64,000 nt of DNA from Ceratotherium simum simum (lineage: Eukaryota > Chordata > Mammalia > Perissodactyla > Rhinocerotidae). Shown piece after piece: positions 62,601-63,394 of the stretch. Location of the stretch: assembly GCF_000283155.1 (NCBI RefSeq), contig NW_004454281.1, positions 364,259 to 428,258 on the forward strand. Direction: 5' to 3'. Made by a program: the position numbers and the translations under genes. Under the pieces are notes generated by a model. It did no database searches and was not told the origin of the DNA. It saw only the letters and a program-made list of their open reading frames with translations. How positions within the stretch are numbered: position 1 is the stretch's first letter; the number at the start of each line of letters is the position of its first letter.

Positions 62601-63394
62601 CAGCGCATGCTCACGCCCCAGGCTGGAGTCCAGAGGTCAGGAGGCAGCCCTGGGGGAGGGCCAGTGCCTGGGCCAGGCAGAGTCCCAGTAGCTATGCAGA
62701 CCCTCATGGCCGACAGGGACACCTGGGCACCCAGAGCCCGCCCTGCATCAGCACCCAGGGCTGCCGGATGGTGTACAAGTGCGGGGCATACTTAGAGCCC
62801 CTGCTGTCACCTCCCACTGGTGTGGGCTGAGTTGGTCTGTGGCAAAGAGGGGACTCTGAACAGTGGCCTCCTGGGCAGTTTATCAAAGTCCCTCCCTCCA
62901 AAGGGGACAATGATGTGGGTGTCGGGGCCTCAGCCCAAGCTTTACTCCTGGCAGGGGAGAGGGAGGCTGGGCCAGAGACTTGGGGCTCCAGGCCTCCAGA
63001 GGAGCCCCCACCCCAACACCCAGAAATGGGGCGATAAGAGGCCTCTCCTCTCTGGGCTGTGCTGCCCGGCCTGAGGCCTGTTCCCGTGTGCACCACCTGC
63101 TGCTGGGCACCCACCTTTCTTGTCCCCCACATTCATGGCCCATTCCTTCTGCGAACAGTAGGCGTCAATGGTCTCGAGCACACTCTGCGGGTCCCCGGCC
63201 ACCGCGTGCTGCAGCACATGGCGCAGGATGCGCTGTTCCTTCTTGTCGCCCCTGAGCCAATTGTGGAGGGACTGCAGGACCAATTCGTTCCAGAAGAGGA
63301 GGAACCAACCCCAGCGTCGCAGGAAGAGCACTAGAGCCAGCAGCGCCAGGCCCAATGAGAAGGCTGCCAACAGCATGGGTGTGGCCTCTGGCAT
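59451..63394 (-). CDS. COMT: COMT, catechol O-methyltransferase (4 coding exons)
   Basis: COMT transfers a methyl group from S-adenosylmethionine to one hydroxyl of catechols (dopamine, noradrenaline, catechol oestrogens) in a Mg2+-dependent reaction. Four exons join to 810 bases, 269 residues; human membrane-bound COMT has 271. Residues 1-50 contain a leucine-rich membrane anchor (about 8-25). The Rossmann-fold methyltransferase follows with LELGAYCGYSAVRMA (about 110-124). Mg2+ and catalytic residues are all present: Asp188, Lys191, Asp216, Asn217 and Glu246, equal to human 191, 194, 219, 220 and 249. The usual internal start of the soluble form (human Met51) is Arg48 here. At the human Val158Met site this gene has Leu155. 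One extra residue lies between Glu246 and the D-G-L-E-K motif. The ATG is the first codon of its exon; 5' untranslated exons lie outside the window. Confidence 0.97.
59880..59995 (+). repeat. L2 LINE 3'-end fragment
   Basis: The words CCCCTAGAACAGCATGTGGC, AGGCACACAGTAGGTGCTCA and CGAAATGCTAGCTGG match the classical L2 3' terminus (CCTAGCACAGTGCCTGGCAC, AGTAGGTGCTCAATAAATG). Confidence 0.8.
60291..60314. repeat. (GGCCTG)4 hexanucleotide tract
   Basis: Four perfect GGCCTG units lie in a COMT intron. Confidence 0.9.
61361..61492 (-). CDS. COMT: COMT third coding exon (residues 159-202)
   Basis: Encodes V-T-V-V-L-G-A-S-Q-D-I-I-P to D-T-L-L-L-E. It contains F-L-D-H-W-K-D-R-Y with the metal ligand Asp188 and the general base Lys191. 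Acceptor CGTTCCAG|GTGACC, donor GTGAGC. Confidence 0.97.
61493..61836 (-). other. COMT: COMT intron between second and third coding exons
   Basis: 344 bases, GT-AG. Nothing else recognised. Confidence 0.9.
61837..62030 (-). CDS. COMT: COMT second coding exon (residues 94-158)
   Basis: 194 bases encoding G-Q-V-L-D-A-V to G-L-Q-D-R, including the SAM-binding LELGAYCGYS and LEINPD motifs. Acceptor CCCCACAG|GCCAGG, donor AGG|GTGTGG. Leu155 (CTG) occupies the position of the human Val158Met polymorphism, four codons before the exon end. Confidence 0.96.
62031..63114 (-). other. COMT: COMT intron between first and second coding exons
   Basis: 1.08 kb, GT-AG. It contains the CCCCAGCCCTCCCC-type minisatellite at 62136-62365. 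No other feature is recognised. Confidence 0.9.
62136..62365. repeat. GAGGCCCCCAGCCCTCCCC-type minisatellite
   Basis: About ten imperfect copies of a unit resembling GAGGCCCCCAGCCCTCCCC, with unit spacing of roughly 20-30 bases, follow one another (for example GAGGCCCTCCGCCCTTCCC, GAGGCCCCCCAGCTCCCCC, GAGGCCCCCAGGCCTCCCC). It is stop-free on the minus strand over much of its length and therefore mimics coding sequence. Confidence 0.85.
63115..63394 (-). CDS. COMT: COMT first coding exon (residues 1-94)
   Basis: Starts directly at the acceptor (minus strand CTACTTCAG|ATGCC) after a long pyrimidine tract and ends at GACAAGAAAG|GTGGGT. It encodes the membrane anchor and W-G-W segment, then N-W-L-R-G-D-K-K-E-Q and K-E-W-A-M-N-V-G. 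Codon 48 (plus-strand 63251-63253) is AGG. Because the ATG is the first base of the exon, its upstream context comes from a previous exon, or from a promoter in the intron if transcription starts nearby. Confidence 0.95.

What the first reader, a model, noticed from the sequence alone, without database searches (positions are those of the whole stretch)
63251..63253. The conserved soluble-COMT start codon is an arginine codon
Mammals with described COMT make a membrane form and a soluble form, the latter starting at an internal Met (human Met51, in L-L-M-G-D-T-K-E-Q). In this window the aligned codon 48 reads AGG (Arg) in N-W-L-R-G-D-K-K-E-Q, a one-base change from ATG. The next in-frame Met is residue 87, which would remove the first helices and part of the SAM site. 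If the base is right, this animal either lacks classical soluble COMT, uses a non-ATG start, or makes it by processing. That would matter for catecholamine and drug metabolism. The rest of the enzyme is intact, so this is not a pseudogene.
Basis: partly seen in the sequence, partly recalled or inferred. Interest (0 to 1): 0.75.

Follow-up and report, generated by a model that had tools for sequence, protein, structure and literature searches.

The report
Rhinoceroses lost soluble-COMT start codon
In white and black rhinoceroses the codon from which other mammals start the soluble form of the catecholamine-inactivating enzyme COMT is no longer a start codon and no nearby one has replaced it, so rhinos may be natural animals with only the membrane-bound enzyme.

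Summary
The window holds an intact COMT gene on the minus strand; its translation equals database COMT of the white rhinoceros, and codon 48 (63253-63251) is AGG. It is not one bad base: black rhinoceros has Thr there, while the five horse-family rows have Met. Met stands at this column in 140 of 152 aligned COMT proteins. Among 117 curated amniote rows 10 lack it, on my count 7-8 lineages; 7 of these 10 have another Met within 10 residues upstream or 3 downstream, against 4 of 107 rows that keep it. So the soluble start seems to slide when lost. The two rhinos and one unnamed row are the exceptions. In the white rhino the in-frame ATGs of the first coding exon are codons 1, 7 and 87, and AGG is reported not to initiate. 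Best reading: rhinos lost the soluble start in a common ancestor and make COMT only, or nearly only, as the membrane form. Main rival: a weak start at CTG40 or TTG38. No RNA or protein data were available. Novelty: a new variant of a known kind (start-codon loss that changes isoforms, as in AGXT).

The parts
63251..63253 (-). Codon 48, AGG (Arg), at the aligned position of the soluble-COMT initiator Met
   Evidence: sequence; alignment: Met in 140 of 152 proteins
63115..63394 (-). COMT coding exon 1 (residues 1-93 and the first base of codon 94): membrane anchor, linker, start of the catalytic domain
   Evidence: tblastn; junction and translation checked
61837..62030 (-). COMT coding exon 2
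   Evidence: AG acceptor, GT donor
61361..61492 (-). COMT coding exon 3 (holds the catalytic motif LDHWKD)
59451..59654 (-). COMT coding exon 4 with TGA stop at 59453-59451
63392..63394 (-). ATG codon 1, start of membrane-bound COMT; directly preceded by a splice-acceptor-like cag
   Evidence: use of the acceptor is inferred
63374..63376 (-). ATG codon 7, second in-frame Met, before the hydrophobic anchor (Met there in black rhino and horse too)
63275..63277 (-). CTG codon 40, possible near-cognate start (-3 G, +4 C), 8 codons before the lost Met; the position where Pteronotus and Sturnira have Met
   Evidence: use as a start is inference
63281..63283 (-). TTG codon 38, possible near-cognate start (-3 G, +4 G)
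   Evidence: use as a start is inference
63134..63136 (-). ATG codon 87, next in-frame ATG (-3 G, +4 A); equals soluble-COMT residue 40

Best explanation
The white-rhinoceros COMT gene is intact but has lost the ATG from which other mammals start soluble COMT. SHOWN: codon 48 is AGG in white rhino and encodes Thr in black rhino; in white rhino no other in-frame ATG lies between codon 7, before the membrane anchor, and codon 87; 7 of the 10 curated rows that lost this Met have another Met close by, and the rhinos do not. INFERRED: the loss happened once, before the two African rhino genera split and after their line left that of horses. Ribosomes that leak past codons 1 and 7, and any short transcript from a soluble-form promoter, then find no in-frame AUG until codon 87. 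A product from codon 87 would lack soluble residues 1-39 and is probably inactive. Rhinos therefore make COMT only, or almost only, as the membrane-anchored form, like a natural version of the soluble-COMT-deficient mouse.
For: Sequence and gene anatomy. Identity with Ceratotherium simum COMT, Thr in Diceros, Met in Equus. Met in 140 of 152 aligned proteins, among them birds, turtles and alligator. Column 48 is one of five columns with 90% or more agreement among the other curated rows at which a rhino departs, and one of two where the two rhinos also differ from each other. Another Met within -10..+3 in 7 of 10 rows that lost Met48 against 4 of 107 that keep it, Fisher p 7e-7; lineage-collapsed 6 of 8 (p 2e-6) or 5 of 7 (p 1.7e-5); likelihood test on the tree, LR 24.1, p 6e-6. 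Rhinos lack such a Met. AGG reported not to initiate: PMC9200866, passages. In described mammals soluble COMT comes from a P1 transcript and by leaky scanning of the longer one: PMC2662804 and PMC3944784, passages. The exon as DNA matches one place in the genome.
Against: No RNA or protein from any rhino was seen. CTG40 and TTG38 have G at -3 and could initiate (CUG and UUG are reported starts; CUG-started uORFs are reported in the human COMT 5' UTR, PMC11066095, passages). Thr in black rhino is probably ACG (codon not seen), and ACG can initiate. The catalytic motifs show no decay. One unnamed row (P0029) and a sturgeon (P0096) also lack Met there with no nearby substitute, so rhinos are not unique. 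The supported branches of the tree force only 2 changes at this site, and the strict pair test has only 2 pairs. The protein search of the genome for a diverged second COMT did not complete.
Confidence: 0.55

Rival explanations
1. Rhinos still make soluble COMT from a near-cognate start upstream of the lost one, most likely CTG40 or TTG38; the product would be 8-10 residues longer at its N terminus.
For: CTG40 has G at -3 and TTG38 has G at -3 and +4. Pteronotus and Sturnira, which lost Met48, have Met at the -8 position of CTG40, so a start there seems compatible with the enzyme. CUG, UUG, GUG and ACG are reported starts (PMC9200866, passages), and ribosome profiling shows CUG starts of two uORFs in the human COMT 5' UTR (PMC11066095, passages).
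Against: Leu is the common residue at -8 (70 of 117 rows), so the position is not special to rhinos. Near-cognate starts are usually weak (recalled). No direct evidence.
Confidence: 0.28
2. The soluble form is supplied another way: proteolytic release from the membrane form, an alternative upstream exon, or a second gene copy.
For: Horse-family entries include COMT-like proteins that differ from the main one (P0092, P0094 against P0003), so extra copies are possible in perissodactyls. The stretch upstream of the window has 4467 unread bases.
Against: The exon finds only its own place in the 2.45-Gb assembly at DNA level. An upstream exon spliced at this exon's start would still include the anchor.
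Confidence: 0.1
3. Met48 was conserved for the protein rather than as a start, and its loss in rhinos is neutral drift in the linker with no effect on isoforms.
For: Leu-to-Met changes are easy in this hydrophobic linker (recalled), so some of the nearby Mets in other species could be chance. Three other linker residues (W35, E37, N45) are conserved about as well as Met48.
Against: Of the 24 other residues 27-51, 21 are below 85% conserved, Met48 is at 91%. Loss is coupled to Met, the most enriched of 20 residues tested. Described mammalian COMT has separate membrane-form and soluble-form ATGs (PMC2662804, passages).
Confidence: 0.05
4. Sequencing or assembly error at this codon.
For: One assembly was read directly. 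The contig behind the database protein is 3,114,370 bases and the held contig 3,098,312; whether they are independent is not known.
Against: Black rhinoceros also lacks Met there, with another residue.
Confidence: 0.02

Closest known systems
Mammalian COMT with two forms, membrane-bound and soluble, from one gene
   Same: Same gene, same anchor, linker and catalytic domain, intact motifs; first Met of the membrane form kept
   Different: The internal Met from which the soluble form starts is Arg in white rhino and Thr in black rhino, and no nearby Met replaces it
Alanine:glyoxylate aminotransferase (AGXT), whose mitochondrial-targeting start was lost in unrelated lineages of fruit bats (PMC8779045, passages; wider losses in mammals recalled)
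   Same: A gene with alternative in-frame starts that set where the enzyme goes; one start lost more than once in evolution
   Different: In AGXT the upstream start is lost and a targeting sequence disappears; in COMT the internal start is lost and the unanchored form would disappear, and often another Met lies nearby
Soluble-COMT-deficient mice (Myohanen et al. 2010; only the title seen, in the reference list of PMC3628796)
   Same: Loss of the soluble form while the membrane form remains
   Different: Made in the laboratory (recalled); the rhino case is natural, presumed, and shared by two genera
COMT of Molossus, Hipposideros, Pteronotus, Sturnira, two elephant shrews and Dromiciops
   Same: Met48 lost
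   Different: Each has another Met at -8, -7, -2 or +2, so a shifted soluble start is available

Membership tests
Catechol O-methyltransferase (COMT orthologue) | Sequence identity with annotated COMT and O-methyltransferase domain | tested here: met
   Translation equals Ceratotherium COMT P0001; Pfam Methyltransf_3 at 70.9 bits, cut-off 22; best solved COMT chain matches residues 49-265
Catechol O-methyltransferase (COMT orthologue) | Intact reading frame, splice sites and catalytic motifs | tested here: met
   Four exons, 807 bases, GT-AG; LDHWKD, LLADN, EWAMNVG, LELGAYCGYS found in both rhinos
Catechol O-methyltransferase (COMT orthologue) | Methylates catechols | not testable with these tools
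   No enzyme assay
Mammalian two-form COMT | Membrane-form start followed by a hydrophobic anchor | tested here: met
   ATG codon 1 and hydrophobic residues about 8-25; anchor judged by reading, no predictor run
Mammalian two-form COMT | Internal ATG just before G-D-x-K-E-Q | tested here: not met
   AGG
Mammalian two-form COMT | A soluble protein is made | not testable with these tools
   No protein or RNA data
Lineages with a shifted soluble start | Another in-frame Met within -10..+3 of the lost one | tested here: not met
   None in P0001 or P0002
COMT pseudogene | Broken frame, lost splice sites or lost catalytic residues | tested here: not met
Start-codon-loss isoform switch (as in AGXT) | Loss of one of two in-frame starts shared by a lineage, other start kept | tested here: met
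   Both rhino genera lack Met48 and keep Met1; fixation within species not tested
Start-codon-loss isoform switch (as in AGXT) | The isoform is actually gone | not testable with these tools
   No protein or RNA data

The most novel reading that the evidence does not exclude
Rhinoceroses are natural soluble-COMT knock-outs: a common ancestor of the African rhinos lost the start of the soluble enzyme without replacement, leaving membrane COMT alone to clear catechols, while across other amniotes selection keeps a soluble start alive by sliding it a few codons when the original is lost.
Probability: 0.5. Interest if true: 0.75.

Novelty: new variant of a known kind. Interest (0 to 1): 0.62.

Why it matters
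Soluble COMT is described as the dominant form in most tissues except human brain (PMC3944784, passages). If rhinos lack it, catechols from diet, drugs and stress hormones would be cleared by the membrane enzyme alone, which bears on drug metabolism in endangered animals and gives a natural test of what soluble COMT is for. The wider pattern, a start codon that slides by a few codons when lost, is a compact and testable case of compensatory evolution of translation starts.

Tried and rejected
Rejected: base error (black rhino also lacks Met); pseudogene; a horse as the source (one search names white rhino; the five horse-family rows have Met); initiation at AGG.

Tried without gain: paper searches for rhinos and COMT (one paper, off topic, listing only), rhino red cells (four listed, none on the subject), start-codon turnover, a conserved soluble start (the main text of PMC7397870 does not hold the word COMT). 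The pair test had only 2 supported pairs; the nearby Met went the same way in 1.8 of them on average, which cannot reach significance. The COMT tree is poorly resolved: it needs 8 changes at this site on its best form, but its well supported branches force only 2. P0029 falls among laurasiatherian rows (fork support 93, not starred) but with no named close relative; a pangolin is a guess, untested. I saw no tapir or Asian rhino named in the lists, which are capped and hold unnamed rows.

Against the reading: the offset range -10..+3 was chosen after seeing the rows. Wider ranges gave 7 of 10 against 5 of 107 and 10 of 107 (p 1.7e-6 and 3.7e-5). Of six other conserved columns used as controls, column 54 reached p 0.013 (its range overlaps that of column 48), the rest 0.068 to 1. 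Trp (3 of 10 against 1 of 107, from the two rhinos and P0029) and Arg (3 of 10 against 4 of 107) were also enriched among losers, less than Met.

Dropped rows: P0088 before the alignment. Before the counts: four rows (P0145 a Fyn-COMT construct, P0129 and P0121 frog, P0096 sturgeon); 15 rows that I judged duplicates, isoforms or near relatives, of which 15 of 15 keep Met; 9 rows with fewer than 30 residues upstream, 9 of 9 Met; 7 rows with gappy cores, 7 of 7 Met. 117 of 153 were left. P0096 and P0145 lack Met48 and were not counted. Each protein search listed only its best 120 of 332, 881 and 733 hits.

Full report
WHAT IS THERE. The minus strand from 63394 down to 59451 holds a complete COMT gene: four coding exons (63394-63115, 62030-61837, 61492-61361, 59654-59454), 807 coding bases, GT-AG at the three introns and a TGA stop at 59453-59451. 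Its translation equals P0001, COMT of the southern white rhinoceros, Ceratotherium simum simum, over 269 residues. In-frame ATGs in the first coding exon are codons 1, 7 and 87.

IT IS NOT A SLIP OF ONE BASE. The black rhinoceros entry (Diceros bicornis minor) has Thr at the same residue. The two rhino proteins differ at 9 of 269 residues, one of them residue 48. The five horse-family rows have Met (two of them begin there). So Met was probably lost on the rhino branch and the codon then changed again; an ACG step between ATG and AGG would fit, but the black rhino codon was not seen. Whether the held assembly and the one behind the database protein are independent is not known (contig lengths 3,098,312 and 3,114,370).

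HOW CONSERVED THE MET IS. I aligned 152 of the 153 COMT proteins collected in three searches (each listing its best 120 hits of 332, 881 and 733). Met stands at this column in 140, of which 7 begin there; the other 12 are Thr 6, Ser 3, Arg 1, Val 1, Gln 1. Met is present in birds, turtles and an alligator as well as mammals. In the 117 curated rows Met48 is at 91%; of the 24 other residues 27-51, 21 are below 85%, while W35, E37 and N45 are about as conserved. Column 48 is one of five columns with at least 90% agreement among the other curated rows at which a rhino departs.

THE UNEXPECTED PATTERN. Of 117 curated rows, 10 lack Met48: the two rhinos, Molossus, Hipposideros, Pteronotus, Sturnira, two elephant shrews (Elephantulus, Rhynchocyon), the marsupial Dromiciops, and one unnamed row, P0029. 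Seven of these 10 have another Met close by: at -2 in Molossus, Hipposideros and both elephant shrews, at -8 in Pteronotus and Sturnira, at -7 and +2 in Dromiciops. Only 4 of the 107 rows that keep Met48 have another Met in the range -10..+3 (Fisher p 7e-7). Collapsed to lineages by known taxonomy it is 6 of 8 (p 2e-6) or, if the two related bats count once, 5 of 7 (p 1.7e-5). A likelihood test for dependent change on the tree gives LR 24.1, p 6e-6. Among the 20 residues Met is the one most enriched near the lost site. Limits: the range was chosen after seeing the rows; the tree is weakly resolved, its best form needs 8 changes but its supported branches force only 2; the strictest pair test has only two supported pairs; one of six control columns, which overlaps, reached p 0.013. 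The manatee row P0071 has both Met48 and Met at -2, the state expected half-way through a shift. The reading is that amniotes keep a soluble start and that it slides. The rhinos and P0029 are the curated rows where it went without a substitute. The sturgeon row, left out of the count, also lacks it.

WHAT THIS MEANS FOR THE RHINO. In described mammals a short transcript from promoter P1 codes only for soluble COMT, and the longer transcript yields it by leaky scanning (PMC2662804 and PMC3944784, passages). AGG and AAG are reported not to initiate, whereas CUG, GUG, UUG and ACG are (PMC9200866, passages). A ribosome that passes codons 1 and 7 in the white rhino message therefore meets no AUG in frame until codon 87, which is soluble residue 40; out-of-frame ATGs at codons 59 and 84 lie between. 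The best solved COMT chain aligns with rhino residues 49-265, so a start at 87 would remove the first 39 residues of the soluble enzyme. The SAM-contacting Val42 (PMC3144909, passages) would be kept as the third residue. I infer, without test, that such a product is inactive. The best explanation is that rhinos make COMT only or almost only as the membrane form (0.55). The main rival is a start at CTG40 (-3 G) or TTG38 (-3 G, +4 G) (0.28); CTG40 lies where Pteronotus and Sturnira carry Met, and CUG starts are reported for uORFs of the human COMT message (PMC11066095, passages). How much soluble form a species makes also varies otherwise: PMC2923157 (passages) contrasts human and mouse brain.

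SECOND COPY. The exon as DNA matches one place in the 2.45-Gb assembly, its own. The protein-level search for a more diverged copy was asked seven times and never answered.

WHAT IS KNOWN. The nearest precedent is AGXT, whose mitochondrial-targeting start was lost in unrelated lineages of fruit bats (PMC8779045, passages). Soluble-COMT-deficient mice exist (title of Myohanen 2010 in the reference list of PMC3628796). In my ten paper searches no listed title or abstract start described loss or sliding of the soluble-COMT start. The lists are capped, the library is open-licence PMC only, and I read passages, not whole papers.

VERDICT. A real loss of a conserved internal start in an intact gene of rhinos, set against a wider pattern of start sliding. 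It is a new variant of a known kind, of moderate to good interest, and it turns on protein data that I could not get.

Noticed in passing
window 62129-62355: Degenerate GC-rich minisatellite (period 20 or 61, about 70% matches) in the intron between COMT coding exons 1 and 2.
   Followed up: no
P0092, P0094 against P0003: Horse-family databases hold a second kind of COMT-like protein (AMIVGNKKG instead of AMNVGDKKG, other changes near the C terminus), which suggests an extra COMT copy in equids.
   Followed up: no
P0121 (421 aa, Leptodactylus), P0129 (350 aa, Gastrophryne): Frog COMT entries are much longer than usual; in P0121 the core motifs occur twice (residues about 84-110 and 243-269), as if the catalytic domain were duplicated in tandem.
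   Followed up: partly
COMT residue 153, window exon 2: Both rhinos have Ser where agreement on Ala among the other curated rows rounds to 1.00.
   Followed up: no
P0071 (Trichechus manatus), offset -2: The manatee row carries both the canonical soluble Met and a Met two residues upstream, the intermediate expected if the start slides.
   Followed up: partly
L002 (upstream of the window): The 9.9 kb upstream of the window hold 4467 unread bases, so the 5' untranslated exons of rhino COMT may be missing from this assembly. The window itself has unread runs at 23333-23432 and 40134-40305.
   Followed up: no
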